From Ferribacterium limneticum (GTDB lineage Bacteria > Pseudomonadota > Gammaproteobacteria > Burkholderiales > Rhodocyclaceae): a stretch of DNA of 64,000 nt. Location: assembly GCF_020510565.1 (NCBI RefSeq), contig NZ_CP075189.1, positions 2,464,501 to 2,528,500 on the forward strand. The letters are read 5' to 3'. The translations under genes and the position numbers were made by a program. This document shows positions 3,418 to 58,393 of the stretch, one piece after another; the stretch's first letter is position 1; each line of letters starts with the position of its first letter. The notes below the pieces were generated by a model. That model did no database searches. It was not told the DNA's origin and saw only the letters and a program-made list of their open reading frames with translations.

Positions 3418-3457
3418 ATTTCAATTTTGGCCGTTATTTCCGGTTGACCGTAGCAAT
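3418..3457 (+). repeat. dispersed core repeat, copy 1
   Basis: Full match to the dispersed element: AT-rich half TTTCAATTTTGGCC, then TTTCCGGTTGACCGTAGCAA. Its last base is part of the stop codon of the minus-strand DUF4202 gene. It lies in the space between the convergent small membrane ORF and that gene. Confidence 0.85.
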
Positions 3458-4056
3458 CAGCCCTCGGCAACCGCTTTCAATATCAGCGGCACCAGCGCCT
3501 CAGGCAGCTTGATACCACCGGTTGTTGCGAAAGCCTGAGCGGCGCCCGACATTTTCTTCCACGTCTTGCGGACGATGCCGAGCCATTTCTCTTCGCTGTA
3601 ATCAGGCTGCTGGCCGGCGAAGCCGAGCATGTAGTGCTCGATGAAGACGAGGCAGCTGACGTCTTCCAGCATCTGCGTATCGGGGTTGGTCTTGAGGCCG
3701 ACCTTGCCGATTGCGGCCTTGACCTGCTCGATCATCGCCTCGTTGTACCCGGCCTGGCGCATCAATTCGCCCGCCGTCTCGGCGTGGAATTGATAGAGCC
3801 CGGTGCGCCAGGCAAAGTAGCCGGGCTTGCCGAGCGGGTAGTTGCTGCGCGGCACCGTCCACCGCTGAATGTGCTGGGCGCGCACGGCGAGTTGGGCGAC
3901 TTCGCTGGCTTCGGGCGCGAAACGGCCGATCATGTTGGTCATGCGCTGGGCGTAAAGCAATTCTTTCGGCTGGCCTTCGTCCTGATTGGGGTCTTGCCCA
4001 TTGGCGGCGTCGAACAGGGCGATGGTTTTGGTGAAGCGTTCCGGGTTGGCGATCAT
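3457..4056 (-). CDS. DUF4202 family protein
   Basis: A 199-residue cytoplasmic protein that resembles the DUF4202 family along its whole length (PKELLYAQRMT, RAQHIQRW, YPLGKPGY, EDVSCLVFIEHY, RKTWKKMS). The family has no assigned reaction. The His/Asp-rich conserved blocks resemble HD-type folds, but this is inference. The start at 4056 (MIANPERF) is preferred over an ATG at 4104 because homologues begin close to it and a purine-rich GAGAG lies just upstream. It is the last gene of a four-gene minus-strand cluster with GST, an unknown protein and GlpE. The stop codon overlaps repeat copy 1. Confidence 0.8.
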   Translation of the reverse strand: MIANPERFTKTIALFDAANGQDPNQDEGQPKELLYAQRMTNMIGRFAPEASEVAQLAVRAQHIQRWTVPRSNYPLGKPGYFAWRTGLYQFHAETAGELMRQAGYNEAMIEQVKAAIGKVGLKTNPDTQMLEDVSCLVFIEHYMLGFAGQQPDYSEEKWLGIVRKTWKKMSGAAQAFATTGGIKLPEALVPLILKAVAEG

Positions 4057-4125
4057 TGAATCTCTCGTAGCAGCGTTTTTGTACAGGTCAGAAAAGTCCT
4101 GCAAATGTTACAGGGCTTTCAGCCC

Positions 4126-4758
4126 TCAACGCAGCACCGAAGCGTAGCCCTCTTCTGCCAGCACCTGGCGCACGGCCGGCCGGGTCAGCATCCGCCGGTA
4201 GTGGGCCTCGCAGTTTTCCGGCAACGGAATGCCGATGCGATCGGCCCAGAACTCGACGTAGAACAAGGCCGCATCGGCAATCGTGAAGTGATCGACGACG
4301 TATTGCCGCCCGGCCAGTTCGCGATTGACGATGGCGAAAGCCTTGTCGATGATCTGCCGGCCCTGCGCCTTGACCGACTCGTGGTCGGAACTGCTCGGCG
4401 CGAAGCGCTCGGTGGTGAAAATGCGGGCGAAGCCTTGCGTGTGCAGCGTGTGCACGGCGTAGTTCATGACGCTGAGCACCTGCACCTCGTCCTTCAAGCC
4501 TTCCGGCAGCAGCTTGCGCTTCGGGTAGTTGCGCCCCAGCCACCAGGCGATGGCCGAGAATTCGGTAAGTGCCGTTCCGTCATCGAGAACCAGCGCCGGA
4601 ATGCTGCCCTTGGGGTTGATCGCGGCGTATTCCTTTTTGTACTGGTCGCCGGCCAGCAGGTTGACGACATAGGCCTCGAAGACCAGACCGCATTCTTCGA
4701 GCAGGATATGGATGCCGGTCGAGCACGAACCCGGCGTCATGTAGAACTTCATGGTCAT
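4126..4758 (-). CDS. glutathione S-transferase family protein
   Basis: A 210-residue protein with the two-domain GST layout: an N-terminal thioredoxin fold (residues 1-80) containing the cis-Pro element GSIPAL and the glutathione-contact region LTEFSAI, then an all-helical C-terminal domain with FTIADAALF, the N-capping/hydrophobic staple of GSTs. Expected to conjugate or reduce substrates with glutathione in the cytosol; the substrate cannot be read from sequence. The start codon overlaps the stop of the upstream gene (ATGA), implying coupling. Confidence 0.9.
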   Translation of the reverse strand: MTMKFYMTPGSCSTGIHILLEECGLVFEAYVVNLLAGDQYKKEYAAINPKGSIPALVLDDGTALTEFSAIAWWLGRNYPKRKLLPEGLKDEVQVLSVMNYAVHTLHTQGFARIFTTERFAPSSSDHESVKAQGRQIIDKAFAIVNRELAGRQYVVDHFTIADAALFYVEFWADRIGIPLPENCEAHYRRMLTRPAVRQVLAEEGYASVLR

Positions 4759-5123
4759 TCGACTTCTTCCTCAAGCGCCAGGCCGGCGAACAACCCTTCC
4801 TGGCGGATCATGGCCTTGAAGGCCTTCATCACCGGGCGGGAGAGTTCGGTTTCAGCCAACACGCGTTTTTCGTAAATGAAATTTTTGAGCGCCTCGCTCG
4901 ACTCGCGTCGGGCCTCCGCGATCAGGGCATGGAATTCGTCGCCGAAACGCTGACCGGGTCGGTCCTTGACGGCGTCGTAGAGCGCTTCCATGACGATCTT
5001 GTCGACGCTCCCCATCTTGCACTTGCCGTCGATGATCTTGAGCATGACCGTGGTGGCGCAATCGACATCGCTCGGCGACAGCGGATGCGCCTGCACCCAG
5101 CCGGCGACATGCGCTGCCGTCAT
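4755..5123 (-). CDS. conserved hypothetical protein in glpE-GST cluster
   Basis: A 122-residue, mostly helical, acidic protein (ends LALEEEVE) that I do not recognise. No signal peptide or membrane segment. Two cysteines (DCATT, GKCKMG) lie in the N-terminal third. The start at 5123 is chosen because it forms an ATGA overlap with the upstream rhodanese gene; upstream codons in the same frame only shadow that gene. Both ends overlap neighbours by four bases, so it is firmly embedded in the cluster and probably works with the sulfurtransferase or the GST. Confidence 0.7.
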   Translation of the reverse strand: MTAAHVAGWVQAHPLSPSDVDCATTVMLKIIDGKCKMGSVDKIVMEALYDAVKDRPGQRFGDEFHALIAEARRESSEALKNFIYEKRVLAETELSRPVMKAFKAMIRQEGLFAGLALEEEVE

Positions 5124-5458: not shown

Positions 5459-5685
5459 GATTGGCGGCGGTAAAAGGCGATAAACCCTGCGATGCAAGAG
5501 CGATGCCACCCGCCGGAATCGCTGAAAGCCGCTATTTGCCGTGAATTTCTGGCATCCCGGCATCCTGACTTGTAGCCTTCGCGACAATCTTCGAAGGCAA
5601 AACTCCGCCAGAATCAACTGTCCCCGGCCGACGCTTTTCCGGTTAGGCTGTCCCGACTGCCGCCGGCAGCCCACCAAGGAACGCC

Positions 5686-7053
5686 ATGCCCACCGCAACA
5701 CGGCCTGAACAGCGCCAGAACCAGCTTCTGGCCGGCCTGAGCCTGGCCGAAGAGTCGCGGCTGCACAACGATCTGGAACCCGTTTCGCTGCAAGCAGGCA
5801 GCGTCCTGCAAAACGCCAGCGAGTTGCTGAGCCACGTCTATTTCCCGACCAGTTGCGTCATTTCACTGATCGCCACGACGCGCGATGGCGCCGCCACCGA
5901 ACTGGCCATGGTCGGCAACGAAGGGCTGGCCGGCATTTCAGCGGTGCTCGGTGACGAAATCTCCAGCCACAAGCTGGTCGTCCAAGGAGCCGGCCATGCC
6001 TATCGTCTGAAAGCCGAAACCCTGCGCTGGGAACTGGCCGAAGGCGGCCGCCTGCAACAAATGGCGCTGCGTTACGCCCAGGCCCTCATGGTCCAGACGG
6101 CACAGGCCCTGCTCTGCACCCGCCACCACAGCGTCGAACAGCAACTGGGCCGCTGGCTGCTGCTCTGCCTGGATCGGCGGCTGGACAACCGGATCGCCAT
6201 GACCCAGGAGCGCATCGCCAGCCTGCTCGGCCTGCGCCGTGAGGCGATCACCGACGCGGCCGGCAAGCTGCAGGCGGCCGGCCTGATCCGCTACGCCCGC
6301 GGCCAGATTGACGTCCTCGACCGGCCGGCGCTCGAGGCACGCGGCTGTGAATGCCATGACGTGGTGCATTTGGAATTTGAGCGTTTTTTCCGGTCGACCG
6401 TGGCAGCCGACTTGCCCAGCCGCTTGCGCCCCAACCCCCTCACCCTGCACCATCGCGCCGAGGCCCGCTGGCGTGAACGTCCCGAAAGCGCGCCGGAAGA
6501 CCCGAGCGAAGCCGCGTATTTGCGGCATGAACTGGAAATTCGCAAGATCGAACTGGAAATCGACAACGAGGCGCTGCACGAAGCCAACGACCAGGCCGAC
6601 GCGCTGAGCGAGCGCTACGCCGACATCTACGATTTCGCGCCGATCGGCTACTTCACGCTCGACGCCCAGGGCAACATTCTCGACCTCAACCTGGCTGGCG
6701 CCATTCTGCTCGGGCTCAAGCGCTCGCAGAAAAGCCGGCACCGCTTCATCAATTATCTGGCGCCCGAATGTCAGGCGGCCTTCACCGAGTTCGTCGACAA
6801 AGTCCTCGCCGAGAAAAAAAGCGGCTTCTGCGAAATTACGCTGACGGCCAGCGCGCAACGCCCGGCATCAACGCTCAGGGTCGAAGCTGTCCCGGATGAA
6901 GACGGTACCGAATGCCGGATGGTGCTCATGGACATGACCGAACAGCACAGTGCGCTGCGGGCACTCAAGCATTCGGAAATTCGCTATCGGCAGTTCATTG
7001 ACGACCTGCCGCTTGGCAAGGACGCCGCCGCCAAACCGCCTAACGACAACTGA
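5686..7053 (+). CDS. Crp/Fnr-type regulator fused to a PAS domain
   Basis: A 455-residue protein. Residues 10-130 form a cNMP-binding-like domain (LQAGSVLQNASELLSHVYFPTSCVISL), 150-225 a Crp-type winged helix (MTQERIASLLGLRREAITDAAGKLQAAGLI), 275-305 an acidic coiled coil, and 310-430 a PAS domain (YDFAPIGYFTLD). The last 25 residues look like the start of a second PAS (HSEIRYRQFIDDLP) that breaks off, so the C-terminus may be truncated. The Cys-rich sequence GCECHD at residue 220 is notable. A putative AAGGA lies at 5675-5679. Repeat copy 2 encodes residues 229-241, the linker between DNA-binding and PAS parts. Likely a DNA-binding sensor; the ligand is unknown. Confidence 0.82.
   Translation: MPTATRPEQRQNQLLAGLSLAEESRLHNDLEPVSLQAGSVLQNASELLSHVYFPTSCVISLIATTRDGAATELAMVGNEGLAGISAVLGDEISSHKLVVQGAGHAYRLKAETLRWELAEGGRLQQMALRYAQALMVQTAQALLCTRHHSVEQQLGRWLLLCLDRRLDNRIAMTQERIASLLGLRREAITDAAGKLQAAGLIRYARGQIDVLDRPALEARGCECHDVVHLEFERFFRSTVAADLPSRLRPNPLTLHHRAEARWRERPESAPEDPSEAAYLRHELEIRKIELEIDNEALHEANDQADALSERYADIYDFAPIGYFTLDAQGNILDLNLAGAILLGLKRSQKSRHRFINYLAPECQAAFTEFVDKVLAEKKSGFCEITLTASAQRPASTLRVEAVPDEDGTECRMVLMDMTEQHSALRALKHSEIRYRQFIDDLPLGKDAAAKPPNDN
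6370..6407 (+). repeat. dispersed core repeat, copy 2 (in frame)
   Basis: One core mismatch (GGTCGACCGTGGCA) but a good T-rich left half (GCGTTTTTTCC). It lies in frame in the linker of the Crp-PAS gene and is read as EFERFFRSTVAA. Confidence 0.65.
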
Positions 7054-7108
7054 CCTGCGCTTGGCCGGACAACAACGGCGAACGCAGTCGCCCGGCCAGC
7101 AAGGCCGA

Positions 7109-7333: not shown

Positions 7334-7571
7334 ATCCGACTCCTTGTATTCGGCCCCCGGGCGAAATTGCCCGGCGCCCGCCCCGACCACAAAGCAGATC
7401 GGGAGCGGCAACCGGAATGTCTGTTGGGCGTTCCGGGATGCGAAACAAAGACTAGTCGGCGGCGCCAACGCCGTCTGTGCGAATTCGCGCTTAAGCCCAA
7501 AATGCGCCGGCGGCCATCGAATCCCGATATTCACCGTTTAGACTTCAGCCTTTCCAATTCCTCCGCCCCGC

Positions 7572-8816
7572 ATGCGCGTCCTTCACACCTCCGACTGGCA
7601 CCTCGGCCAGCACTTCATGGGCAAGAGCCGGCAGGCCGAGCATCAGGCGCTGATCGCCTGGCTGCTCGAACAGGTGGAAACCCAGGCGGTCGATGCGGTG
7701 CTCGTCGCCGGCGACATTTTCGATACCGGCACGCCGCCCAGCTACGCCCGCGAGCTGTACAACCAGCTCGTCGGGCAACTGTACAAGGCCGGCGTGCCGC
7801 TGCTGGTTCTCGGCGGCAACCACGATTCGCCGGCCACGCTGGGAGAAAGCCGCGAACTGCTCGCCCACCTTGGCACCACGGTCATCGCCGCGACGCACGC
7901 CGACCCCACCACGCAAGTCATCGTCCTCCCGCAACGCAACGGCGAACCCGGCTGCATCGTCTGCGCCATCCCCTTCATCCGCCCGCGCGACGTGCTGCAA
8001 AGCCAGGCCGGGCAAAGCGCCGAAGACAAGCAGTTGTCGCTGCAAGCGGCCATCCATGAACATTACGCCACTGTCTTCGCTGCCGCCGTCGAACGCCAGA
8101 CCGCACTTGCCGCCGAACTCGGCCCGAATTTCGGCCGTCCGCTACCCATCATCGCCACCGGCCACCTGACCACAGTCGGCGCCAGCACCAGCGAATCGGT
8201 CCGCGAAATCTACGTCGGCGCCCTCGAAGCCTTCCCGACCGCAGCCTTCCCGCCAGCCGACTACATCGCCCTCGGCCACATCCACCGGCCGCAAAAAGTC
8301 GGCGGCCTCGACCACATCCGCTACTGCGGCTCGCCCATCCCGCTCGGCTTCGACGAAGCGAAACAAACCAAGGAAATGCTGCTCGTCGATCTCGACAGCG
8401 ACGGCCTCAAAGCCGTTACCGTCCTGCCCGTGCCGAGCTTTCAGGCCCTCGTCGCCGTCAGCGGCAATCTCGACACGCTGGCCGGCGCCATCGGTGCCGC
8501 CGCCGCCCAAGGCACGCGCGAATGCCCGGCCTGGCTCGAAGTCACCGTCGCCGAAGACGACTATTTGGCCGACCTGCCGGCCCGCATCGAAGCGCTCACC
8601 GAAGGCTGGCCGGTCGAAGTCCTGCGCATCCGCCGCCAGCGCGGCAACGCGGTCGCCAGCCTGGCGGCAGCAGCAAAAGAAACCCTGGACGAACTCAGCC
8701 CGCACGACGTCTTCGCCCGCCGCCTGCAGCAGGAAGAGCTCGGCGACGAGCTGCAATCCGCCCTCAACGAACGCTACCGCGCCGTCGTCGCCAGCCTGCA
8801 GGGGGAAGAAGCATGA
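7572..8816 (+). CDS. sbcD: exonuclease SbcCD subunit D
   Basis: Mre11-type nuclease subunit of the SbcCD complex, which cleaves hairpins and processes DNA ends. The 414-residue protein has the metallophosphoesterase motifs in order: SDWHLG (residues 7-12), GDIFD, GGNHDS and GHIH. The start ATG matches the conserved N-terminus [12 protein letters not shown]. The stop overlaps the sbcC start (ATGA), the normal sbcDC arrangement. Confidence 0.96.
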
Positions 8817-11800
8817 AAATCCTCACCCTGCGCCTGAAAAACCTCAATTCGCTCAAAGGCGAATGGACCATCGACTTCACCAAGCCGCCTTTCACCGACA
8901 ACTGCCTGTTCGCCATCACCGGCCCGACCGGCGCCGGCAAATCGACCCTACTCGACGCCATCTGCCTCGCCCTCTACCACCAGACGCCGCGCCTGAAGAC
9001 CATCTCGGCCACCGACAACGACATCATGACGCGGCACACCGCCGACTGCCTGGCCGAGGTTGAATTCGAAGTGAAGGGCGCCGTATACAGCGCCTTCTGG
9101 AGCCAGCGCCGGGCCCGCGACAAGATCGACGGCGCGCTGCAGGCACCCAAGGTTGAATTGGCCACTGGTGACGGCACCATCCTGAGCACGCAGACCAACG
9201 ACAAACTCAAACGCATCGCCGAAATCACCGGCCTCGATTTCCCCCGTTTCACCAAGTCCATGCTGCTCGCCCAGGGCGGCTTCGCGGCCTTTCTCAATGC
9301 CAGCGCCAACGAGCGGGCCGAACTGCTCGAAGAGCTGACCGGCACCGAGATTTACGGCGAAATTTCGCGCAAGGTTTTCGAGCAGGCGCGCGAGGCCAAA
9401 AGTCAGCTCGACCAACTCAAAGCCCGCGCCGACGGCATGGAACTGCTCAGCGACGAGCAACGCGCCGCCATGCAACTCGAAGTCACCCGCCTCGACAGCC
9501 AACTTACCGACGTCCAGCGCCGCCACCAGCAAACCCAGGCCCAGCGCCAGTGGCGCCTCGATCTGGCGCAGAGCGAGCAGGAAATCAAAACCGCAGAAGG
9601 CAGGCTACTTGAAGCCGACACCGCACTGACTGCCGCCGCCCCGGACCTCAAAAAACTCGCCGACAGCGAGCCGGCCGAAGCCCTGAAACCACTGCACTTG
9701 CAATGGCAACAGGCCGGTGCCGCCTGTCAGCAAAGCGAAGTCGAACTCAAGGCCCTGCACGCCGAACGCGAAACGCGGCAAGCCGAACAACTCGCCCAAC
9801 ACCAAGCCGCCAGCCAGTTCAGCGCCCAGCTCGCCGCCCAGACCCAGCAAGCCCTGCAACAAAGCCAGCGCGAAGCCAAAGAACTCGACGACTTCTGCGC
9901 CGCTCAGCCGCAACGCGCCCAACTCGGCGAACGCCTCGGCGTCTGGCGCCAGCAGTTCGAGCAGCGGGCAAAACTAGTCCGCGACCTCGCCGCCCAGCAG
10001 CAGGCGCAGCAAAAGCTCGCCCGGGAACTCGCTGAAACCGCGCAGCAGATCGAAAAACAGACTGCCACGGTCAACCGGGAAAAAGAGGCAAAAACCAAAG
10101 CCGACGCCGCGCTGGAAAAAACCCAGACCGAGCAGAATCAGCGCCTCGCCGGCCAGACCCTGGCCGAACTGCGCCAGCACTGGCAAGGCGAACAAGCCGG
10201 CCTGAATCGCTGGCAACAACTCGAAACCCTCGCCCAACGCCGCCGCGAACTGGCCGCGCTGCAAACGACGCAAAGCACGCAACTGCAGCAGATTCAGGAA
10301 AAGATCGCGGCGCAGGAAAAGGGCCTGACCGCCCTGCGCGAACAGCACAAAGAACTCGCCGCCCAGGTCGCCGACAAGCAAAAGCTGCTCGACCAGGAAC
10401 GCCGCATCCAGAGCCTAGAAGCGCATCGCCGCCAACTGCAACCGGACGAAGCCTGCCCGCTGTGCGGCGCCCACGACCACCCGGCCATTGCCGACTACGC
10501 CGCGCTCGACATTTCCGCCACCGAAACCGCCCTCAAGGAAAAGCAGGCAGCGCTCGACGCGCTTGTCCAGAAAGGCCAGCAAGCCAGGGCCGAGCAAGCC
10601 GCGACGCAGGCCACGCAAAAAGAATGGCTGGCCCAGCAGGCCAAGACCACGCAGGAAACAAGCCGCCTGCAAACGGAATGGTCCGAACTGCTGGCTGGCC
10701 TCGCCAACGCTACGCCGCTGGCGGACAGCGCATGGCAGGAAGCCGAAACCCTTGCCGCCGCGCGCAGCACCGCCGAACAAGCGCTGGCCCGACTCACCCA
10801 GCGCCTGCACGCCGCCGATCAGGGCGAACAAGCCCTAAACGCCGCCCGCAAAACCGCCGCCGAAGCCGCCCAAACCCTGCTCAACGCCAGCAATCAGCTC
10901 GATCTGCTGCAACAAACCGCGCAAACCGGCCAGCAACGCCAGACAGAATTGGCCAAAGCCGCGCAGGCACTGGTTCAGGAACAGACCGAACTCGACGAAA
11001 AACTGGGCGCAACGCTGACCGCCGCCAGCTACGAAATCCCGACCGAACCCGCCTCCTGGCTGCAGGAACGCGACGGCGAATGGCAACACTGGCAGCAAAC
11101 GCAGAAACGCCGCCACGAACTGGCCGAAATCCTCGTCAAACAACAGGAACAATTCAACGCCGCGCAGGCCCAAGCAAAGCACTGGTCAGAACAACTGGCC
11201 AACCTTCAATTGCTACGGTCAACCGGAAATATCGGCCAAAATCAAAATCCCGAATCGTTCACCGCCGATCCCGCAACCGCCCTAGCCCGCTGCGCCGACG
11301 CCATCGCCGACCTGACCCGCCAACTCGCCGCCCAACAAGGCCGCCAGACCCAACTCGACGCCAACCTCGCCCAACAGCAAAAAACCCTCGCCGAGGCCAC
11401 AACCGCTTGGCAAACAGCCCTCGCCACCAGCCCCTTCGCCGACCTCGCCGCCTACAGCGCCGCGCTGCTACCGCCACAAGAACGCCAGCGCCTGCAGCAA
11501 ATCAAGGAAACCCGGCAACTGGCGCAGCAACAAGCTGCCGCCGTCCTCAAGGCCGCCAGCGAAAAACTGCTGCGCTTGCAAAGCAACCCGCCAGATTCGC
11601 CCCATCCCCCACCCAGCCTCCCCCTTGAAGGGGGAGGAGACAAACACCTTGCCCCGCCCCCCGCCTTGTTCCCCCCCCTTCAAGGGGAGGGCCGGGGTGG
11701 GGATGGGTTCATTCCGCCGCTTGCCGAACTAGAAGAAATCCTCACCCAACTCGAAACCCACCGCCGCACCCTAAGCGAACAACTCGGCGCCCAACGCGCC

Positions 11801-15200: not shown

Positions 15201-15234
15201 TGGCGCAGATCCGATCGGCGCCATTTTGATTTTG
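15201..15234 (+). terminator. Rho-independent terminator after hydrolase
   Basis: Stem TGGCGC / GCGCCA (15201-15206 with 15218-15223) with an 11-base loop, followed by TTTTGATTTTG. The T-rich tail is the left half of repeat copy 5, so element and terminator share bases. Confidence 0.6.
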
Positions 15235-15262
15235 CTGCTTTTTTCCGGTTGACCGTAGCAAT
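15223..15262 (+). repeat. dispersed core repeat, copy 5
   Basis: Intergenic copy between the convergent hydrolase and peroxiredoxin genes: ATTTTGATTTTGCTGC, then TTTTTTCCGGTTGACCGTAG and CAAT. Perfect core. Confidence 0.85.
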
Positions 15263-15282
15263 CTGCGAATCGGGACCTTGAT

Positions 15283-19910: not shown

Positions 19911-20124
19911 GCACCGCGGCGGCGAGCATCTGCACCGCTTCGGGTTGCCTTATTTTGTGCTGGCCTCGCTGCTCGTGCATGGGCTGGCCCTGCAGTTGAA
20001 ATTTGATTTTCAGCCGTTTTTTCCTGTTGACCGTGGAATATCCCGGCTCGACGTTTTATTGGCCCCGGCGCGACTCCCGGATATTCCGACGCCGGTGCTC
20101 GCGGTGCCCGGCAATTGCCCATGA
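19873..20124 (+). pseudogene. TonB-like protein remnant
   Basis: An 83-residue frame. Residues 24-41 (LPYFVLASLLVHGLALQL) resemble the N-terminal anchor of TonB-family proteins, and SRLDVLLAPAR resembles the segment after the anchor in betaproteobacterial TonB-like proteins. The rest, including the periplasmic TonB C-terminal domain, is absent. Repeat copy 6 sits in frame between anchor and LDVLLA (read as FDFQPFFPVDRG). With the regulator remnant before it, this looks like a decayed regulator-tonB pair. It could still encode a small membrane peptide. Confidence 0.55.
20000..20039 (+). repeat. dispersed core repeat, copy 6 (in TonB remnant)
   Basis: AATTTGATTTTCAGCC, then GTTTTTTCCTGTTGACCGTG and GAAT: one mismatch (CCTGTTG for CCGGTTG) and one extra base in the left half. 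In frame. Confidence 0.75.
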
Positions 20125-21817: not shown

Positions 21818-23194
21818 ATGCGACCCCTAGCCTTCGTAGACCTCGAAACCACCGGCGCCACCGCCACCCATGACCGCATCACCGAAATCGGCATCGTTGA
21901 GGTCGATGCCGACGGCAGCGTTCGCGAATGGCAGCAACTGGTCAATCCCGGCATGCGGATTCCGCCCTTCATCGAGCAATTGACCGGCATCAGCAACGAC
22001 ATGGTGGCCGAGGCGCCGCCGTTCGAGGCGGTGGCGGCGGAAACCATGAAGCGGCTGGAAGGCCGGCTGTTCATCGCCCACAACGCGCGTTTCGACTACG
22101 GCTTCCTGAAAAACGAGTTCAAGCGCCTCGGCATCACTTTCCGCGCCTCGGTGCTGTGCACCGTCAAGCTCTCGCGAACGCTCTTTCCCGAACACAAGCG
22201 CCACAACCTCGACAGCCTGATCGAGCGCCACGACCTGCAAGCCAATGCCCGCCACCGGGCGCTGGCCGACGCCCAACTGATATTTCAATTTTGGCAAAAA
22301 ATTCGCGTTGACCGTAGCAACGAGCAAATCGAGGCCGCACTCAAGGCTCAGAACGCCCACCCCAGCCTGCCGCCGCATCTCGACGTCGGGATCATCGACG
22401 AATTGCCGGAAGGCCCCGGCGTTTACCTGTTCTACGGCGAAAACAACCTGCCGCTCTACGTCGGCAAGGCCAAGGATATCCGCCAGCGCGTGCTTTCGCA
22501 TTTCGCCGGCGACCACAGCGCCGCCAAGGAAATGGAACTGGCCCAGCAGGTCAAGCGCATCGACTGGATCGAAACGGCCGGCGAAATCGGCGCCCTGCTC
22601 AAGGAATCGGCTCTGGTCAAGGCTTTGCAGCCGTCGCACAACCGGCAATTGCGCAAGAACGACGAGGCCTGCACATGGACACTGATCGATGAAGGCGAAG
22701 GCTGGTTGCGGCCGCAGCTCATGGCGCTGGCTGACATCGAAGCCGGCCTGACCAGCGCCTGCTATGGCCTGTTCAAGACCACCAAGGAAGCCAACAAGGT
22801 GCTGCACGCCCTGGCCGAATCGCACAACCTGTGTGACGTCCTGCTCGGGCTGGAAAAAGCCAAACCGGGCAAGCCCTGTTTCGGCCACCAGCTCCGACGT
22901 TGCAAAGGCGCCTGCGTTGGCGCCGAACCCTACGCCAAACACACCGTTCGCCTGATCTCGGCACTCGTCGGCCTCAAGCTCGTTGCCTGGCCCTTCGCCG
23001 GCCCCGGGCTGGTCCGCGAAGGCGACGAAATCCACCTCATCGAAGGCTGGCGCTACGTCGGCACCGCCCGTTCCGACGACGAACTGCACGCCCTGCTCGA
23101 CAGCCCGCGCCCGGCCTTCGACCGCGATATCTACAAAATCCTCACGAAATACGTCGGCAAGCTGATTCCGTTATCATCGACCCGACCATCCTGA
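21818..23194 (+). CDS. DnaQ-like exonuclease fused to UvrC-type GIY-YIG endonuclease
   Basis: A 458-residue fusion. Residues 4-160 are a DEDDh 3'-5' exonuclease (FVDLETTGA; HNARFDYGFL; HRALADAQ). Residues 185-270 are a GIY-YIG nuclease like UvrC/Cho (GPGVYLFYGENN, LYVGKAKDIRQRV), followed by a UvrC-like region with KPGKPCFGHQLRRCKGAC. Proteins of this form are usually considered repair nucleases. Repeat copy 7 encodes residues 155-168, exactly between the two domains. Confidence 0.9.
   Translation: MRPLAFVDLETTGATATHDRITEIGIVEVDADGSVREWQQLVNPGMRIPPFIEQLTGISNDMVAEAPPFEAVAAETMKRLEGRLFIAHNARFDYGFLKNEFKRLGITFRASVLCTVKLSRTLFPEHKRHNLDSLIERHDLQANARHRALADAQLIFQFWQKIRVDRSNEQIEAALKAQNAHPSLPPHLDVGIIDELPEGPGVYLFYGENNLPLYVGKAKDIRQRVLSHFAGDHSAAKEMELAQQVKRIDWIETAGEIGALLKESALVKALQPSHNRQLRKNDEACTWTLIDEGEGWLRPQLMALADIEAGLTSACYGLFKTTKEANKVLHALAESHNLCDVLLGLEKAKPGKPCFGHQLRRCKGACVGAEPYAKHTVRLISALVGLKLVAWPFAGPGLVREGDEIHLIEGWRYVGTARSDDELHALLDSPRPAFDRDIYKILTKYVGKLIPLSSTRPS
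22281..22320 (+). repeat. dispersed core repeat, copy 7 (in frame)
   Basis: TATTTCAATTTTGGCA, then AAAAATTCGCGTTGACCGTA and GCAA. Left half as in copies 1 and 8; one core difference (GCGTTGACC). Read as FQFWQKIRVDRS between exonuclease and GIY-YIG domains. Confidence 0.8.
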
Positions 23195-26164: not shown

Positions 26165-26204
26165 GATTTCAATTTTGGCTGTTTTTTCCGGTTGACCGTG
26201 GCAT
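26165..26204 (+). repeat. dispersed core repeat, copy 8
   Basis: Intergenic copy between divergent btaA and the gene at 26313: ATTTCAATTTTGGCTG, then TTTTTTCCGGTTGACCGTGG and CAT. Perfect core. Confidence 0.85.
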
Positions 26205-26312
26205 CCGGCGCTCTGTAAAAATTTGATACAAATCGTCGCAAAAACACCCATCGAAAAAAATCCAATCGGGGCAAAACTGCGGGTCTACTGATTTTTGCAA
26301 AAGGAGTGACCG

Positions 26313-31686: not shown

Positions 31687-32678
31687 ACGACGCGACAGGC
31701 GTAGGGATCGGGGACTTCCACGGTCAACCGGAAATTTTGCCCATTTTTCAAAGCGGTCATTTCGGCCAGGATGGAGACGGCGATTTCGGGCGGCGTGCGG
31801 CTGCCGATGGGCAGGCCGACCGGGCCGTGCAGGCGATCGACTTCGGCTTGCGACAGGTCGAAATACTGCAGCAGTCGTTCGCGGCGTTTGCTGTTGTTGG
31901 CCTGCGAACCGAGCGCGCCAACGTAGAAGGCTGGCGACTTGAGGGCTTCGAGCAGGGCCAGGTCGTCGAGCTTGGGATCGTGGGTCAGCGCCACCACGGC
32001 ACTGCGCGGGTCGAGGCTGAGTTCGGTCACCGCATCGTCGGGCATCGCGGCGATTCGCTCGGTGCCGGGAACGTCCCAGCCGTCGGCATACTCGCTGCGC
32101 GGGTCGCAGATATAAACGCGATAGCCGAGGGCCTGCGCCATGGTCGCCAGGTAGCGCGAAATCTGCCCGGCGCCGATGATCAGCAGCCGCCAGGCCGGGC
32201 CGTGCAGGGTGACCAGTGTTTCGCCGTCCCATTGCTGGCTGTCGCCGGCGCTGCCGCCTTCGAGGCTGACCGCGCCGGTGGCCAGCGCAACCCGCCGATG
32301 CACCAGTTGGCCGGTGCCGATGCGCTGGGCGAGTTGTTCGAGCAAGGCGGCATCGGGCGCTGGTTCGAGCACCAGTTCCAAGGTGCCGCCGCAGGGCAGG
32401 CCGAAGCGATGCGCTTCATCGGCCGTCACGCCGTAGCGCAGCAGTCGGGGCATTCCACCCACGAACTCGCCGTCCGCCGCCCGCCGGATCAGGTCGTCCT
32501 CAATGCAGCCGCCGGAAACCGAGCCCTGCACCTGCCCGTCGTCGCGCAGGATCATCCAGGCGCCCGGCGGCCGCGGGGCGGAACCCCAGGTCCGGACGAC
32601 GGTGATCAGCGCGAAGCGATGCCCGGCCGCCGCCCACTTGCGGGCGGCGTCAAGGACCTGCGTATCCAGGCTGTCCAT
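31683..32678 (-). CDS. xdhC: XdhC family molybdoenzyme maturation protein
   Basis: A 331-residue XdhC/CoxI-type protein. N-terminal SGGCIEDDL block (residues 58-66), a Rossmann-like C-terminal domain (LLIIGAGQISRYLA; VALTHDPKLDD; YVGALGSQANNSKRRERL). It inserts the sulfurated cofactor into its molybdenum hydroxylase, here the IorAB enzyme encoded upstream. One base separates it from iorB, and it overlaps mocA. Repeat copy 9 encodes part of the C-terminal tail (NGQNFRLTVEV), just after the conserved domain. Confidence 0.88.
   Translation of the reverse strand: MDSLDTQVLDAARKWAAAGHRFALITVVRTWGSAPRPPGAWMILRDDGQVQGSVSGGCIEDDLIRRAADGEFVGGMPRLLRYGVTADEAHRFGLPCGGTLELVLEPAPDAALLEQLAQRIGTGQLVHRRVALATGAVSLEGGSAGDSQQWDGETLVTLHGPAWRLLIIGAGQISRYLATMAQALGYRVYICDPRSEYADGWDVPGTERIAAMPDDAVTELSLDPRSAVVALTHDPKLDDLALLEALKSPAFYVGALGSQANNSKRRERLLQYFDLSQAEVDRLHGPVGLPIGSRTPPEIAVSILAEMTALKNGQNFRLTVEVPDPYACRVV
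31716..31752 (-). repeat. dispersed core repeat, copy 9 (3' end of xdhC)
   Basis: Minus-orientation, sense with respect to xdhC: TTTGAAAAATGGGCAAAA, then TTTCCGGTTGACCGTGGAAG. Core perfect to GACCGTGG; left half less typical. Confidence 0.7.
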
Positions 32679-42182: not shown

Positions 42183-42198
42183 GCCCGGGTTTGCCCAT

Positions 42199-42237
42199 TC
42201 CCACGGTCAACCGGAAATTTCGGCTAAAAATGAAATA
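42199..42237 (-). repeat. dispersed core repeat, copy 12
   Basis: Intergenic, 17 bases after the MFS stop: minus strand ATTTCATTTTTAGCCGAA, then ATTTCCGGTTGACCGTGGGA. Core with one late difference (GGGA for GGCA). Confidence 0.85.
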
Positions 42238-49115: not shown

Positions 49116-49529
49116 ATGGCCGAGCAACATCAACTCGCCATCACCACCCGCGGGCGCGGTTCGCTTGAAATAACCGAGGAAATCGCCGCCGTGGTCAGGA
49201 ATGCCACGGTCAACGCCGGAATTGCCCATATTTTCGTACGCCATACGAGTTGCGGCCTGGCCATCACCGAAAACGCCGACGCCAGCGTCCGCCACGATCT
49301 CGAAACCCTCATGCAACGCTGGGCGCCGGACGGCGACCCGGCCTATCGCCACGACCTCGAAGGCGATGACGACATGGCCGCCCACGCCCGTTCGCTACTG
49401 ACCGGCGTTTCGCTGACCGTCCCCTTTGCCGACGGCCGCCTGCTGCTCGGCACCTGGCAGGGCATCTACCTGTTCGAGCACCGGACGCAGGGACATAGTC
49501 GGGAAATCGTCGTCACGCTGCTCGGCTGA
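49116..49529 (+). CDS. yjbQ: YjbQ family protein (secondary thiamine-phosphate synthase type)
   Basis: A 137-residue UPF0047/YjbQ protein. HTSCGLAITENAD (the conserved His-Thr-Ser with Glu-Asn), HDLEGDDDMAAHARSLL and GTWQGIYLFEHR are diagnostic. E. coli YjbQ has weak thiamine-phosphate synthase activity; the natural role is unclear. A core-like match to the dispersed repeat at 49201-49214 encodes a family-typical segment and is likely chance. Confidence 0.92.
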   Translation: MAEQHQLAITTRGRGSLEITEEIAAVVRNATVNAGIAHIFVRHTSCGLAITENADASVRHDLETLMQRWAPDGDPAYRHDLEGDDDMAAHARSLLTGVSLTVPFADGRLLLGTWQGIYLFEHRTQGHSREIVVTLLG

Positions 49530-52992: not shown

Positions 52993-53021
52993 TTCTGAAG
53001 CGAATAACGAGGAGATAAAAA

Positions 53022-53546: not shown

Positions 53547-53567
53547 CAACGCGAATGGAACCGCGCC

Positions 53568-54311
53568 ATGCGCCCGTTAAGTGCTGCTCAAGTTCTCGCC
53601 CTGTGGGACGCCGGACAGACACGCCATCCGATTGACCGCGCGCTGCTGGCGCTGGCCTTGGCCATGCCGGAAGAAGCGCCCGACGAACTGGCCGACCGCC
53701 CGGTCGGCTGGCGCGAAGTCAATCTGCTCGCCCTGCGCAACGCCACGTTTGGCAGCGCGCTGGACGGCTACGCGCCGTGCCCGTCGTGCGGTGCACTGAT
53801 GGAGTTCAGGCTGGATGGCGAAACGCTGCTCGACGGACTTCCGACGCCTGACAGCAACACCCGCATCAAGCTCGATGGCCAGCAATGGCGGCTGCCGAGC
53901 AGCCGCGATCAAGCGATGATTCTCGATGCCCCGAACCCGGAAACCGCGGTTTGTTGGCTGCTGGATCGTTGCCGGATCGATGAAGGCGGATTGACTGACG
54001 TTCCCACGGTCAACCGGAAAAAAAGCCCAAAAATGAAAACCTCCCCGGCCCTGGTCGGCGAACTCGAATCGCACATGGAGGCGCTCGACCCGGCCGCCGA
54101 TATCCGGATCGGCATGCAATGCGCCGATTGCGGCGACGTATGGAGTGCCGCGCTCGACGTCGGCGCCTGTTTTTGGGACGAACTCGGCAACCGCGCCCAC
54201 CAGTTGCTCGAATCCGTCCATAGACTAGCCAGCGCCTACGGCTGGCGGGAGGCCGAAATTCTGGCCCTCAGCCCGGCCCGTCGGGCGGCTTATCTGAACA
54301 TGATCGGCTGA
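53568..54311 (+). CDS. T4-type baseplate hub assembly chaperone-like protein
   Basis: A 247-residue cytoplasmic protein at the position of the gp26/gp51-like chaperone in such clusters. LALAMPEEAPDELADRPVGWREVNLLALRNATFG and the PCPSCGA Cys pair (residues 68-72) with a second zinc-like pair CADCGDVW near residue 185 suggest a small zinc-stabilised assembly factor, similar to T4_baseplate proteins. Repeat copy 14 encodes residues 145-157 (PTVNRKKSPKMKT), a basic tract in an otherwise acidic protein. Confidence 0.75.
   Translation: MRPLSAAQVLALWDAGQTRHPIDRALLALALAMPEEAPDELADRPVGWREVNLLALRNATFGSALDGYAPCPSCGALMEFRLDGETLLDGLPTPDSNTRIKLDGQQWRLPSSRDQAMILDAPNPETAVCWLLDRCRIDEGGLTDVPTVNRKKSPKMKTSPALVGELESHMEALDPAADIRIGMQCADCGDVWSAALDVGACFWDELGNRAHQLLESVHRLASAYGWREAEILALSPARRAAYLNMIG
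54001..54039 (-). repeat. dispersed core repeat, copy 14 (in eCIS chaperone gene)
   Basis: Minus orientation: TTTTCATTTTTGGGCTTT, then TTTTCCGGTTGACCGTGGGA. The AT-rich half stands out sharply in this GC-rich gene. Frame kept open. Confidence 0.85.
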
Positions 54312-54318
54312 GACGACG

Positions 54319-55140
54319 ATGCGCGGCTTCCTCCACCAACTCGCCACCCGCAGCCTGGGTCTCGCCCCGCAAATCAAGTCGCGCGCCGCGCTGCCTTACG
54401 CGGCACCACCGGCCGATTTTGCCCACGCCGAAGCGGCCAGCCACCAAGCCCCGCCCGCCAGCGCGGCAATCGAGCGCCCAGGATTGGAGCAGTCGCCAAA
54501 CGCCCGGCGCAGCGAGCAGGTGGCGGACAATGCGCTGCCGGCGCCCATCGTTGCCGACAATACTGAGCCTGCCGCCCGCCTCGAAACGCAAACCTCGATG
54601 CCAAGCATCGGCCAGCCGCCCCGAATAGCCGCCCGGCAGTCACCCGAGGGAGCTTTGCTCGACAGAGCGCCCGACAGGCAAGCCACGCCACCCACCGGCA
54701 AAACCGCCGCCAGCCAGCTCACAGCCGAACAAAAACCCGTCCCGCATCACCCCGAGCCGGGGCCTGCAGCCCGCCACCCGGCCGAAAACGCCCAGGCCGC
54801 TGTCACCGACCTAGAAAGCCTGGTCACCCGACTGCTCAGCGATCAGTCAAGCCATCCGGAAAAGTCACCTGAAACCGCCACGCCGCCCGCAGTTATCACG
54901 CAGCGCCAAGCCAGCCCGCGCCCCGCGGCGATCAGCGCAGTCCGCCCGCAAGCCAGTCGCGAGCACCCCGCCACCACGCCGGAAACCGACAGCGCGCCCG
55001 AAGTGCACATCACCATCGGCCGCCTCGAAGTCAATCCGCCCAGCCGCCCGGCGCCGGCTGCCCAGCCGCCACGCCCGCGCGGCCCGGCGCCGCTGTCGCT
55101 GTCCGACTACCTGGCCCGCCGCCACGGAGGCCGCTCATGA
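54319..55140 (+). CDS. Pro/Ala-rich eCIS-associated protein
   Basis: A 273-residue protein that is mostly disordered Pro/Ala/Gln/Glu-rich sequence (residues 25-215). Only the ends look ordered: MRGFLHQLATRSLGL at the start and, at the C-terminus, VHITIGRLEVNPP and LSLSDYLARRHGGRS, short motifs that recur in proteins at this position of other eCIS loci. The stop overlaps the next start (ATGA). It may be a linker or an assembly factor; no enzymatic motif. Confidence 0.75.
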   Translation: MRGFLHQLATRSLGLAPQIKSRAALPYAAPPADFAHAEAASHQAPPASAAIERPGLEQSPNARRSEQVADNALPAPIVADNTEPAARLETQTSMPSIGQPPRIAARQSPEGALLDRAPDRQATPPTGKTAASQLTAEQKPVPHHPEPGPAARHPAENAQAAVTDLESLVTRLLSDQSSHPEKSPETATPPAVITQRQASPRPAAISAVRPQASREHPATTPETDSAPEVHITIGRLEVNPPSRPAPAAQPPRPRGPAPLSLSDYLARRHGGRS

Positions 55141-56429
55141 GCAACGCCCTGGCCATCGCCGGCGTCACCGCCGTCATCAAGGACCTGCTCGACTCCGGGA
55201 TGATCGACCAGGCCATCACTGACGCCATGGGAGCCGGTGTCGTTGTCAGCGCGCGGGCGCCCGACACGATCCCTCTCGACGATGCCGACGGCCCTCAGCT
55301 CAATCTATTTCTCCATCAGGTCACGCCGAACGCCGCATTGCGAAATGCCGCCCTGCCGTCGCGCGATGCCACCGGCAACCGCAGTACCAACCCGCCGCTG
55401 GCCCTTGATCTGCACTACCTGTTGACCGCTTACGGCCGGGCCGAATTGCAAGCCGAGGTGCTGCTCGGTTACGCCCTGCAACTCCTGCATGAAACCCCCG
55501 TACTGCCGCGCGCCGCCATCCGACGGGCCCTTAACCCGGCCGTCATCGATGGCGCCGCCCTGCCCGCCATTTACCATAGCCTGCGCGGTGCCGATCTCGC
55601 GGAGCAGGTCGAACTGCTCAAAATAACCCCCTCCGCGCTCAGTACCGAAGAAATGTCCCGACTCTGGTCGGCCCTGCAGGCGCACTACCGCCCCACCATC
55701 GCCTTCCAGGTCTCGGTCGTACTGATCGAGTCCAGCAAATCAGCACGCAGCCCCTTGCCGGTCCTCAGCCGCGGCGAGACCGACCCGGTCTCGAAGCGCG
55801 AACGTGGCGTGCTGGCCTTCAGCGGCCTGACCCCGCCCCTGCCCACGCTGGAGGCGGTCGTTCCGGCGGGTCGCCAGCCAGTCGCTGTGCCTGGCGGCGA
55901 AGTGAGGCTCGAAGGACATCATCTCGATGGCGTAGACCGACAGGTCACCTTCAGCCTCGCCTCCTTCCAGATCAGCCGCAGTGTTCCCGTCATCAGCGGC
56001 AGTTCCGCCAAGGTCAGCCTCATCGTCCCGAACGACCTGCCGGTCGGTCTCTACCGCATCGAACTATCCGTTCAAGGTCTTGGCGACGCTCAGGCCCGCC
56101 GCACCAACCAGTTACCACTGGCGCTGGCCCCCCAAGCTGTGTTGCCGCCTTTCAACGCCACCCGCAACGGCGCCGCCGTGACGCTCGTCCTGGATGTCGC
56201 GCCACCCGTACGCGCCGGCCAGACTGCCGCCCTGATCCTCGGCGAACGCGAAATCGCCGCCGAGCAATTCACCGCCACCACCAGCCGGCTAACGTTCAAG
56301 ATCGCCGACGCACCGGAGGCCGGCAGCACCCATCTGGTACGCCTGCGGGTCGATGGTTTCGAAAGCCCGATCATCGACCGCATGGCAACGCCGACTGCCT
56401 ATCTCGACCGCCGGATCACCCTGCCATGA
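55137..56429 (+). CDS. DUF4255 tail-terminator-like protein
   Basis: A 430-residue protein. Residues 1-190 are a DUF4255 domain (MSNALAIAGVTAVIKDLLDSGM, LNLFLHQVTPNAALRNAALPSRD, LALDLHYLLTAYG, LLGYALQLLHETPVL), which in Afp/PVC particles forms the tail cap or terminator. Residues 215-430 add beta-sandwich, IPT-like repeats (PGGEVRLEGHHLDGVDRQVTF), an extension not always present. Overlaps both neighbours by four bases. Confidence 0.88.
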   Translation: MSNALAIAGVTAVIKDLLDSGMIDQAITDAMGAGVVVSARAPDTIPLDDADGPQLNLFLHQVTPNAALRNAALPSRDATGNRSTNPPLALDLHYLLTAYGRAELQAEVLLGYALQLLHETPVLPRAAIRRALNPAVIDGAALPAIYHSLRGADLAEQVELLKITPSALSTEEMSRLWSALQAHYRPTIAFQVSVVLIESSKSARSPLPVLSRGETDPVSKRERGVLAFSGLTPPLPTLEAVVPAGRQPVAVPGGEVRLEGHHLDGVDRQVTFSLASFQISRSVPVISGSSAKVSLIVPNDLPVGLYRIELSVQGLGDAQARRTNQLPLALAPQAVLPPFNATRNGAAVTLVLDVAPPVRAGQTAALILGEREIAAEQFTATTSRLTFKIADAPEAGSTHLVRLRVDGFESPIIDRMATPTAYLDRRITLP

Positions 56430-58393
56430 ACGCCCCGCTCGCCCAGGACTGGACCATCGCCAACCAGCAACTGCTGGTCGCCGAATTCACGCGGCTCAAG
56501 CAACGACTGCAAGCAGCAAACGGCAAGGCCATGCCGAACCAGACCGACCCGCTGCCGGCCATTGCCGAAGCCCGTCTGGCGCTGCGCAGCGAAGGCGCCA
56601 TTGACTGGCTGAGTAGCGCCTTCGGGCTTTCCACCTTCGAGCGCGACTTGCTGCTCCTCTGTGCCGGTTTCGAAATGGATGGCGAACTGGCCAGCATCTG
56701 CAGCGCGGCCCAAGGCAAGGACTGCCGGCCGTCGATCAGCTTCAGTCTGGCGCTAAACGCCCTTGATGCTCCGCACTGGAGTGCCCTGACGCCGCAACGC
56801 CCGCTACGCCGCTGGCGTCTGCTCGAAGTCGACGACAGTACCGGCCTGGCCGCCGGGCGCTTGCGCATTGACGAACGGATACTGCATTTCCTCGGCGGCA
56901 TCAATGAGCTGGATACCCGTCTCGTCCACCTGCTGCGCCCGGCACGCAGCCTGCCACAGCAGGCCGCCACGCATGCCGCGACGACGCGCGCAGTGCTTGC
57001 TACGGTCAACCGGGAAAATGAGACAAAAACAGAAATCCCCATCGTCATCCTCGAAGGCGACGACCCGGCCGCGCAGGAAGACATTGCCGCCCGCGTCGCC
57101 GAAACCCTCGGCCTGCAATGCCTGACACTGCTGGCCGAAGACATACCGCCCGGCGCCGAAGAACGGTCGGCACTGATCACCCTCTGGCAACGCGAAGCCA
57201 CGCTGCTCGGCACCGCCCTGCTCGTGGTCATCGCCGATCCCGGTTCGTCAGCCAGCGATGCGGCCCACGCCCTGCTCGAACGGGTCGGCGGCCTCTGTCT
57301 GGTTGCCTCCCCGACGGCACCGGCGCTGACCACACTATCCCTGCGCCACCCCGTCAACAAGCCGGACAGCAGCGAACGCCGCCAGTTGTGGATAGATGCC
57401 CTCGGTTCAGCCCGCGCCGTCCCCGAACTGGAGCGCGCCGCCAGCCATTTCCGTCTCGGCAGCCAGTCTGTCCAGAGCATCGCCCATGCCTTGCGCAGCA
57501 CGCTGGCCATGCCTGCCGATGGCGCCGACACAGCGAGCCTGACGCCACTGTGGGACGGGTGCCGGCAAGCAAGCCGCGGCGGCCTGGACAAGCTTGCCCA
57601 ACGGCTCGACGCCAAGGCCAGCTGGGACAGCCTGGTGTTGCCGGAAGCCCAACTCGCCATGCTGCGCCAGATCGCCGCCCACCTGCGCCAGCGCTTCAAG
57701 GTACAGGAAGAATGGGGGTTCGCCGCCCAGGGCAATCGCGGACTGGGTCTGGCCACCCTGTTCGCCGGTGAAAGCGGCACCGGCAAGACGCTGGCCGCCG
57801 AAGTGCTGGCCCATACGCTGCAACTTGACCTCTTCCGCATCGATCTGTCGGCGGTCGTCAGCAAATACATCGGCGAAACTGAAAAGAACCTGCGCAAGGT
57901 CTTTGATGCCGCCGAGGATTGCGGTGCCATCCTGCTTTTCGACGAAGCCGATGCCCTGTTCGGCAAGCGCACCGAAGTCAAGGACAGCCATGACCGCCAT
58001 GCCAATATCGAAGTCAGCTACCTGCTGCAGCGAATGGAGGCCTACCACGGGCTGGCCGTCCTCACCACCAATCTCAAATCCAGCCTCGACCCGGCTTTCC
58101 TGCGCCGCCTGCGTTTCGTTGTGCACTTCCCCTTCCCCGATCAGGCCCAGCGCCTGGCCCTGTGGCAGCGCGTCTTCCCGGCCGCCACGCCAACCCGCGA
58201 CCTGGATCTCGACAAGCTTTCCCGCCTCTCGATGACCGGCGGCAGCATTCGCAACATCGCGCTTAACGCCGCCTTCCTCGCCGCCGATGCCGGCGAACCG
58301 GTGACCATGCGCCACCTGCTGCAGGCCGCCCATGCCGAGGCATCCAAACGCGAACGGCCACTGGCCGATGCCGAAACGCGAGGCTGGGCATGA
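56426..58393 (+). CDS. eCIS AAA+ ATPase
   Basis: A 655-residue ATPase of the kind always found in eCIS loci (Afp15-like). The C-terminal AAA module has Walker A GESGTGKT (Lys454), Walker B LLFDEAD (D506-E507), sensor 1 LTTNLKSSLDPAFLRRL and an arginine finger. The N-terminal 400 residues are an extra ATPase-like or adaptor domain. It probably assists assembly or cargo loading. Repeat copy 15 encodes residues 191-204 (ATVNRENETKTE). Confidence 0.93.
   Translation: MNAPLAQDWTIANQQLLVAEFTRLKQRLQAANGKAMPNQTDPLPAIAEARLALRSEGAIDWLSSAFGLSTFERDLLLLCAGFEMDGELASICSAAQGKDCRPSISFSLALNALDAPHWSALTPQRPLRRWRLLEVDDSTGLAAGRLRIDERILHFLGGINELDTRLVHLLRPARSLPQQAATHAATTRAVLATVNRENETKTEIPIVILEGDDPAAQEDIAARVAETLGLQCLTLLAEDIPPGAEERSALITLWQREATLLGTALLVVIADPGSSASDAAHALLERVGGLCLVASPTAPALTTLSLRHPVNKPDSSERRQLWIDALGSARAVPELERAASHFRLGSQSVQSIAHALRSTLAMPADGADTASLTPLWDGCRQASRGGLDKLAQRLDAKASWDSLVLPEAQLAMLRQIAAHLRQRFKVQEEWGFAAQGNRGLGLATLFAGESGTGKTLAAEVLAHTLQLDLFRIDLSAVVSKYIGETEKNLRKVFDAAEDCGAILLFDEADALFGKRTEVKDSHDRHANIEVSYLLQRMEAYHGLAVLTTNLKSSLDPAFLRRLRFVVHFPFPDQAQRLALWQRVFPAATPTRDLDLDKLSRLSMTGGSIRNIALNAAFLAADAGEPVTMRHLLQAAHAEASKRERPLADAETRGWA
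56997..57036 (-). repeat. dispersed core repeat, copy 15 (in AAA+ gene)
   Basis: Minus orientation: ATTTCTGTTTTTGTCTCA, then TTTTCCCGGTTGACCGTAGC. Core perfect; the left half contains the same T-rich block. Frame kept open. Confidence 0.8.

What the first reader, a model, noticed from the sequence alone, without database searches (positions are those of the whole stretch)
3418..57036. Dispersed 38-40 bp element with core CCGGTTGACCGTRGCA
Twelve good copies: + strand at 3418, 6370, 15223, 20000, 22281, 26165; - strand at 10062, 11211, 31716, 42199, 54001, 56997. Each has a T/A-rich left half (typically TTTCAATTTTGGC, then T-rich) and the conserved right half. Copies are unrelated to gene family or orientation and occur about every 5 kb. 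The layout (short conserved core plus adjacent AT tract, both in genes and between genes) recalls uptake signal sequences; a genome-architecture or protein-binding site is another option. I know no described family with this core.
Basis: partly seen in the sequence, partly recalled or inferred. Interest (0 to 1): 0.85.

Follow-up and report, generated by a model that had tools for sequence, protein, structure and literature searches.

The report
Likely DNA uptake sequences in Azonexus
About a thousand copies of one 42-base signal are scattered through this bacterium's chromosome, and they look like the tags that a few other bacteria use to recognise and take up DNA of their own kind, here in a group for which our searches found no such tags described.

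Summary
All 12 copies are at the stated places; two weaker ones were added. The element is 42 bp: two A/T tracts whose ends lie 11 bp apart, then CCGGTTGACCGTRGCA. A scoring matrix finds 113 copies in 464 kb and none in random sequence, so roughly 1,000 in the 4.15-Mb chromosome.

Copies lie in both orientations, inside and between genes, without replication-strand bias. They are not insertions: in 117 comparisons at 19 orthologous sites, 101 relatives have exactly 42 bp between the flanks and none has an empty site. The element arises in place by base substitution.

It belongs to one genus (Azonexus/Dechloromonas). A general pattern is at least 4 times its control in 39 of 76 genomes. Sampled species have dialects: a shared GTYGACCG core, upstream A/T, a variable 3' end. 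A region with conjugation genes is nearly free of copies.

This is the profile of the uptake sequences of Pasteurellaceae and Neisseriaceae, and I think that is what it is (0.75). ComEC and type IV pilus genes are present. No receptor was identified, uptake is untested, and one carrier has an interrupted comEC. Our searches found no description of it.

The parts
3417..3458 (+). element, score 66.8, between genes (touches the end of a minus-strand gene 3457-4056)
6367..6408 (+). element, score 51.3, inside ORF 5686-7053
10060..10101 (-). element, score 52.0, inside the sbcC gene; orthologous site with exactly 42 bp between flanks in 4 of 4 relatives
11208..11249 (-). element, score 60.4, inside the sbcC gene
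15222..15263 (+). element, score 56.7, between genes
20000..20041 (+). element, score 49.8, between genes by my calls
22281..22322 (+). element, score 50.5, inside a DnaQ/UvrC-like gene 21818-23194; orthologous site aligned in 46 relatives, 44 with exactly 42 bp between the flanks
26165..26206 (+). element, score 63.9, between a DUF3419 gene and a degP-like gene
31713..31754 (-). element, score 50.8, in an xdhC-like gene
42196..42237 (-). element, score 59.1, just past the end of an MFS transporter gene
49199..49240 (-). marginal copy, score 15.7
53999..54040 (-). element, score 59.8, inside ORF 53568-54311
56995..57036 (-). element, score 45.1, inside an AAA ATPase gene 56426-58393

Best explanation
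The element is an uptake sequence: a lineage-specific tag that a DNA receptor of the competence machinery (most likely a minor pilin of the type IV pilus) binds on free DNA, so that DNA of the same lineage is taken up preferentially and recombined into the chromosome. Fragments that carry a better match are taken up more often, so matches spread through the population by recombination. This bias in uptake, not transposition, builds up about a thousand near-consensus copies by point substitution and lets the consensus drift into species dialects when the receptor changes. Shown here: the element, its copy number, its three-part anatomy, its origin by substitution in place, its limitation to the genus at the sensitivity used, its dialects in sampled species, its near-absence from one region with conjugation genes, and the presence of ComEC and type IV pilus genes. 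Inferred: receptor binding, preferential uptake, and the drive.
For: Copy number and strength: 229 exact 14-mers against 0 in the reversed control; 113 matrix sites in 464 kb against 0 in nulls; the upstream half, not used to choose the copies, carries about 24 bits (my sum's columns, no small-sample correction). Anatomy like the Pasteurellaceae USS: core plus two A/T segments about a helical turn apart (passages of PMC1626085). Not insertions: 117 ortholog pairs at 19 sites, 101 with exactly 42 bp between separately aligned flanks, none near 0. Dialects: over-represented GTYGACCG-based words with differing 3' ends in other enriched genomes of the genus (G167 shares the window's form), with A/T excess upstream; 14 pairs at 4 sites hold the core at the same place with another 3' end. 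Genus: 10 of 12 sampled members have 133-657 matches to CGGTYGACCGYRR; the 285 other family genomes have at most 19. In the genus 39 of 76 are at least 4 times control. Region with transfer genes: 2 copies in 120 kb, 29.4 expected. No replication-strand bias: 52 against 61, p 0.45. ComEC in 71 of 76 genomes; 17 pilin-type N-termini in the own genome, 16 over the cut-off.
Against: I found no uptake or binding data for these species. No receptor could be tied to the dialect: PilE is 60% identical in G137, 47% in G138 and 36-39% in G167, G168, G153, G143 and G179, which share the dialect, and 42-48% in four non-enriched genomes. ComEC and pilins are also present in non-enriched genomes, so machinery does not predict the element. 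In the enriched genome G153 comEC is interrupted by about 34 kb, and in the enriched G132 it has a stop and lies in two pieces, so these carriers may not be competent now. The core is nearly palindromic (22 bp in the G122 form), which would suit a dimeric DNA-binding protein. Density is about a quarter of the one copy per kb given for USS and DUS (PMC1626085, passage).
Confidence: 0.75

Rival explanations
1. Binding site of a genome-wide DNA-binding protein unrelated to uptake (nucleoid, segregation or recombination factor), kept by selection at each site.
For: Near-palindromic core, perfect in the TCG forms and 22 bp long in G122; copies lie between genes about twice as often as random 42-mers (50 of 126 against 19%); foreign DNA would lack such sites too.
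Against: A long strong consensus at some 1,000 sites, more than half in genes, is stronger than regulatory binding sites usually show (PMC1626085, passage, makes this argument for USS). No relation to replication arm. Forms differ between congeners while sites can stay in place; 36 of 76 congeners are below 2 times control.
Confidence: 0.15
2. Small mobile or replicating repeat (REP, MITE or similar).
For: High copy number and strong consensus.
Against: No empty site in 117 ortholog pairs at 19 sites; relatives without the element still have 42 bp there (39 pairs at 8 sites); 2 matches in the viral collection, none in plasmids.
Confidence: 0.02
3. Transcription terminators, promoters or operator sites.
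For: Intergenic excess; one overlapping inverted pair in L141.
Against: More than half of the copies are inside genes and on either strand, with no evident preference along the gene; among 126 copies only one inverted pair lies closer than 60 bp.
Confidence: 0.03
4. Self-marker for a defence or recombination enzyme acting on the chromosome (Chi-like or restriction-linked).
For: Self against foreign distribution in one region.
Against: Chi-like sites are short and oriented to replication (recalled); here there is no orientation bias. A 42-bp signal is longer than any restriction site I know of (recalled).
Confidence: 0.05

Closest known systems
Uptake signal sequence (USS) of Pasteurellaceae
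   Same: Short strong core plus two A/T segments spaced by about a helical turn; 65% of H. influenzae copies in protein-coding regions; arises by substitution, not insertion; two subclade types (PMC1626085: abstract and passages; section 7).
   Different: Core unrelated (AAGTGCGGT and ACAAGCGGT have 3 and 1 matches in 464 kb here); longer and nearly palindromic core; a betaproteobacterial genus; about one copy per 4 kb instead of near one per kb.
DNA uptake sequence (DUS) of Neisseriaceae, receptor ComP
   Same: Several dialects with a shared inner core (PMC3630211, passages); reduced density in integrative conjugative elements (PMC7371117, passages); a PilE-type pilin of the own genome matches Pfam ComP_DUS.
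   Different: DUS has no flanking motifs (PMC1626085, passage) and shares a CTG core, absent here; GCCGTCTGAA has 1 match in 464 kb; the ComP_DUS match is to a PilE whose relatives occur in enriched and non-enriched genomes alike.
Genome-organising sites (matS, parS, KOPS, SlmA and Noc sites; recalled)
   Same: Dispersed sites read by a protein; several are palindromic.
   Different: Fewer or much shorter, and often tied to ori, ter or strand (recalled); here about 1,000 long copies without such bias.

Membership tests
Uptake sequences (DUS/USS) in the broad sense | Hundreds of near-consensus copies per genome, far above chance, both orientations | tested here: met
Uptake sequences (DUS/USS) in the broad sense | Copies arise by substitution at fixed places, not by insertion | tested here: met
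   101 of 117 pairs with exactly 42 bp between flanks, none near 0; pairs are not all independent
Uptake sequences (DUS/USS) in the broad sense | Lineage dialects with a shared inner core | tested here: met
   from samples of 80-100 kb per genome
Uptake sequences (DUS/USS) in the broad sense | Depletion in recently acquired mobile DNA | tested here: met
   one region only: 2 copies in 120 kb against 29.4 expected; of the six stretches only L135 and L136 were chosen beforehand (1 against 9.8)
Uptake sequences (DUS/USS) in the broad sense | Competence machinery (type IV pilus, ComEC) | tested here: met
   ComEC and pilin genes found; ComEA, DprA, PilQ and PilT were not searched for
Uptake sequences (DUS/USS) in the broad sense | Specific receptor pilin | tested here: inconclusive
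   12 of 17 pilins compared; none clearly follows the dialect; one weak lead, L204:10433-11188
Uptake sequences (DUS/USS) in the broad sense | Preferential uptake of tagged DNA | not testable with these tools
   needs an experiment
Pasteurellaceae USS | Core AAGTGCGGT or ACAAGCGGT | tested here: not met
   3 and 1 matches in 464 kb
Pasteurellaceae USS | Two A/T segments next to the core, about one helical turn apart | tested here: met
Neisseriaceae DUS | GCCGTCTGAA-type sequence with CTG core | tested here: not met
   1 match in 464 kb; no CTG in the core by eye
REP/MITE-like mobile repeats | Empty sites in relatives | tested here: not met
   0 of 117 pairs

The most novel reading that the evidence does not exclude
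A third uptake-sequence system that arose independently of DUS and USS in the betaproteobacterial genus Azonexus/Dechloromonas: a quasi-palindromic GTYGACCG core with two A/T tracts, split into several dialects that replace one another at fixed chromosomal positions, read by a still unknown receptor that may bind as a dimer.
Probability: 0.6. Interest if true: 0.9.

Novelty: new variant of a known kind. Interest (0 to 1): 0.82.

Why it matters
In the papers seen here uptake sequences are described from two families, Neisseriaceae and Pasteurellaceae. A further case in environmental bacteria, with enriched and non-enriched species inside one genus, would allow the origin, loss and switching of self-DNA recognition to be studied directly. 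The A/T-tract anatomy shared with USS would suggest that the tracts serve the mechanics of uptake and are not a family accident. It would also give a practical handle: tagging DNA with the species' own form could make members of this genus, some of which are known for pollutant degradation and phosphorus removal (recalled), easier to transform.

Tried and rejected
Mobile repeat: rejected by the flank-distance test. My first test of this was biased, because a spanning alignment would break at a 42-bp gap, so I replaced it with separately aligned flanks. Chi- or KOPS-like orientation: rejected, 52 leading against 61 lagging. Terminators: one close inverted pair in 126 copies. Phage or plasmid origin: the 19-base pattern is in 2 viral contigs, a consensus in no plasmid record at E 0.01. 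Known RNA family: no Rfam match in the window at the gathering score.

Receptor: PilE and the FimT operon were compared in 20 genomes and 12 of the 17 pilins in 8 genomes; the five pseudopilins near 965 kb and the GspG gene were left out as type II secretion parts. One pilin, L204:10433-11188, is 53-83% identical in G137, G167, G168, G153 and G190 (window form or mixed) and 36-41% in G122, G112 and G126; neighbouring genes show a smaller trend the same way. I count it as a lead, not a result. A tree of IleS (15 of 21 genomes, several partial, 3 of 12 inner branches well supported) places 4 of 6 carriers of the window's form together; I draw nothing from it on dialect phylogeny. The gene calls are my own simple codon-usage method (coding fraction 0.80, too low at stretch ends).

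Dialects were read from 80-100 kb of 13 other genomes, 12 of them enriched. Palindromic cores are counted on both strands. In one search one of the two search expressions asks for TT upstream, which favours A/T there; one search does not. In one search a few genomes outside the genus exceed their control several-fold, but on counts of 19 or less.
Full report
What is there. The window is part (2464501-2528500) of a single-contig 4,150,051-bp genome. Its closest named relatives, by a DnaQ/UvrC-like protein, are Azonexus, Dechloromonas and unnamed betaproteobacterial assemblies. From the window and 20 evenly spaced 20-kb stretches (464 kb) I aligned 89 copies with at most 2 core mismatches. The consensus is A TTT SR WWTTT GGCC N WWWTTT CCGGTTGACCGTRGVA ATC. 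The far A/T tract spans about -21 to -12 and the near one -6 to -1 before the core, their ends 11 bp apart. The upstream half was not used to select copies, yet holds about 24 bits by my sum of its columns. A 42-column matrix gives 113 sites at score 14 or more, 102 of them at 25 or more, against none in random sequence. The 20 even stretches alone hold 99, which scales to about 1,027 per genome.

Where copies lie. The right arm has 32 plus and 30 minus, the left 31 and 20; leading against lagging is 52 to 61, p 0.45 (arms by the sign of GC skew). Of 126 copies (sample plus eight further stretches) 69 are coding, 7 at an edge, 50 intergenic, where random 42-mers are intergenic 19% of the time. 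Of 66 copies inside a single gene, one reading phase is favoured: 18 of 26 on the gene's strand and 31 of 40 on the other. Of the same-strand phases, the one in which the core reads TGA has one copy. There is no evident preference along the gene.

Not insertions. I aligned 250 bp on either side of each copy separately to relatives' DNA and measured the distance between the flanks. Of 117 pairs at 19 sites, 101 have exactly 42 bp, 15 have 30 to 57 and one has 96; none is near 0. In an earlier run with 106 pairs at 18 sites, 94 had exactly 42 bp, and in 39 of these, at 8 sites, the element itself was absent (score below 8). The site in the DnaQ/UvrC-like gene shows it best: relatives without the element align across it, 44 of 46 with exactly 42 bp. 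Gap analysis of orthologs was used in the same way to show that USS are not insertions (PMC1626085, section 7).

Limits and dialects. The exact 14-mer occurs 229 times here, 6 times and once in two congeners, and 0-2 times in the other 118 of 121 family genomes. With up to 1 mismatch the 16-mer passes 100 copies in 11 of 76 genus genomes. A broader pattern, CGGTYGACCGYRR, has 133-657 matches in 10 of 12 sampled genus members, 12 and 27 in the other two, and at most 19 in the 285 genomes of other genera; a few of those exceed their own small controls several-fold. In the genus, CSGTYGACCGYNR is at least 4 times its reversed control in 39 of 76 genomes, below 2 times in 36, and 2.6 times in one. 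Counting words without prior assumption in 80-100 kb of each of 13 other genomes, the leading words were GTCGACCGTG (29 against 1.2 expected) in G122, GTCGACCGCT (21 against 1.7) in G125, GTCGACCGCG and GACCGCAGCA in G127, TGCGGTCGAC in G160 and G170, GTCGACCGTG in G128, GTCGACCGCA in G132, CGCGGTCGAC (23 against 4.1) in G175 and TGCGGTCAAC in G182; G190 mixes two forms, G167 shares the window's, G124 is weak (12 against 2.0) and G126, not enriched, has none. In all ten genomes upstream A/T exceeds composition (from 35 sites against 12.0 in G160 and 10 against 2.9 in G175 to 30 against 5.5 in G170 and 32 against 5.6 in G122). At 14 pairs from 4 sites the relative has GTYGACCG at the very same place with another 3' end; at two of these sites that end is the relative's own leading word (G125 at one, G128 and G170 at the other). 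Coding constraint could keep part of such a core by itself. The G122 form is a 22-bp palindrome.

Foreign DNA. Six stretches between 2.70 and 2.95 Mb hold 2 copies in 120 kb where 29.4 are expected (Poisson 8e-11). Four of the six were chosen after I saw the gap; the two chosen beforehand hold 1 against 9.8 (p 6e-4). In this region are TraC, TraN and TraU matches, weaker matches to TraB and TraH below NCBIfam's cut-offs, a MobH relaxase, a TraD-like protein, and catabolic enzymes including a 4-hydroxy-2-oxovalerate aldolase. Drops in DUS density mark islands in Neisseriaceae too (PMC7371117, passages). A 19-base pattern has 2 matches in the viral collection, and a consensus none in plasmids.

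Machinery. ComEC is found in 71 of 76 genus genomes, in all 51 of the better ones, and as an 833-residue frame here. Two enriched genomes have a broken comEC: G153 (about 34 kb inside it) and G132 (a stop and two pieces). Seventeen pilin-type N-termini were found, 16 over the cut-off. One operon holds FimT-, PilV-, PilW- and PilX-like pilins, a large ORF that I take for PilY1 from its place and size, and a PilE that matches Pfam ComP_DUS at 5.7e-25. PilE does not follow the dialect. I could not name the receptor.

Reading. A long strong consensus in a thousand fixed places that arose by substitution, takes different forms in congeners, and spares a region with conjugation genes is what uptake bias with recombination would produce; I know of no other process shown to do so. 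PMC1626085 remarks on the anomalous strength of the USS consensus (passage). The three-part anatomy is that of USS, but the core is not. It is therefore not a member of USS or DUS as families, but works, I think, as they do.

Print. The library holds no paper with both Dechloromonas and 'uptake sequence'. Searches for the core as letters (15 of 57 listed), for Rhodocyclaceae, Rhodocyclales or Azonexus with uptake terms (8 of 33 listed), and for competence or uptake sequences more widely (12 of 141, 15 of 18, 12 of 216 and 3 of 3 listed) showed no description of it. Only listings were seen there, and most subscription journals are not held.

Noticed in passing
G174:C1:2218607-2251157 (L333, L334) and G153:C33:109525-143311 (L335, L336): comEC is split near position 28 of the Pfam Competence domain by about 32-34 kb of lower-GC DNA in two congeners. 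The inserts share a DNA polymerase B-like protein and a D5-like helicase/primase; G174's has a serine recombinase and an AAA_13 protein, G153's a type ISP restriction enzyme. A mobile element that may disable competence.
   Followed up: partly
G129, G140, G132: comEC also looks truncated (G129), split into two frames (G140), or carries a stop with pieces on two contigs (G132).
   Followed up: no
G000:C1:2660000-2950000: Element-poor region, sampled in six stretches, with conjugative transfer genes and catabolic genes: a likely integrative conjugative element or set of islands.
   Followed up: partly
window 55137-58393: A Pvc16-type protein next to an AAA ATPase gene, resembling part of a contractile injection system.
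   Followed up: no
L204:6563-13445: Variable pilin locus: two pilins and a 758-residue protein are 28-93% identical to their best matches in 8 congeners, while a cyclase gene (87-96%) and ORF 7386-9068 (73-93%) of the same locus, both unmatched in G122, are better conserved.
   Followed up: partly
L045: A relative 91% identical in the query protein has CCGGTTGACCGTCAAA at the orthologous site of the 26165 copy, a further possible dialect.
   Followed up: no
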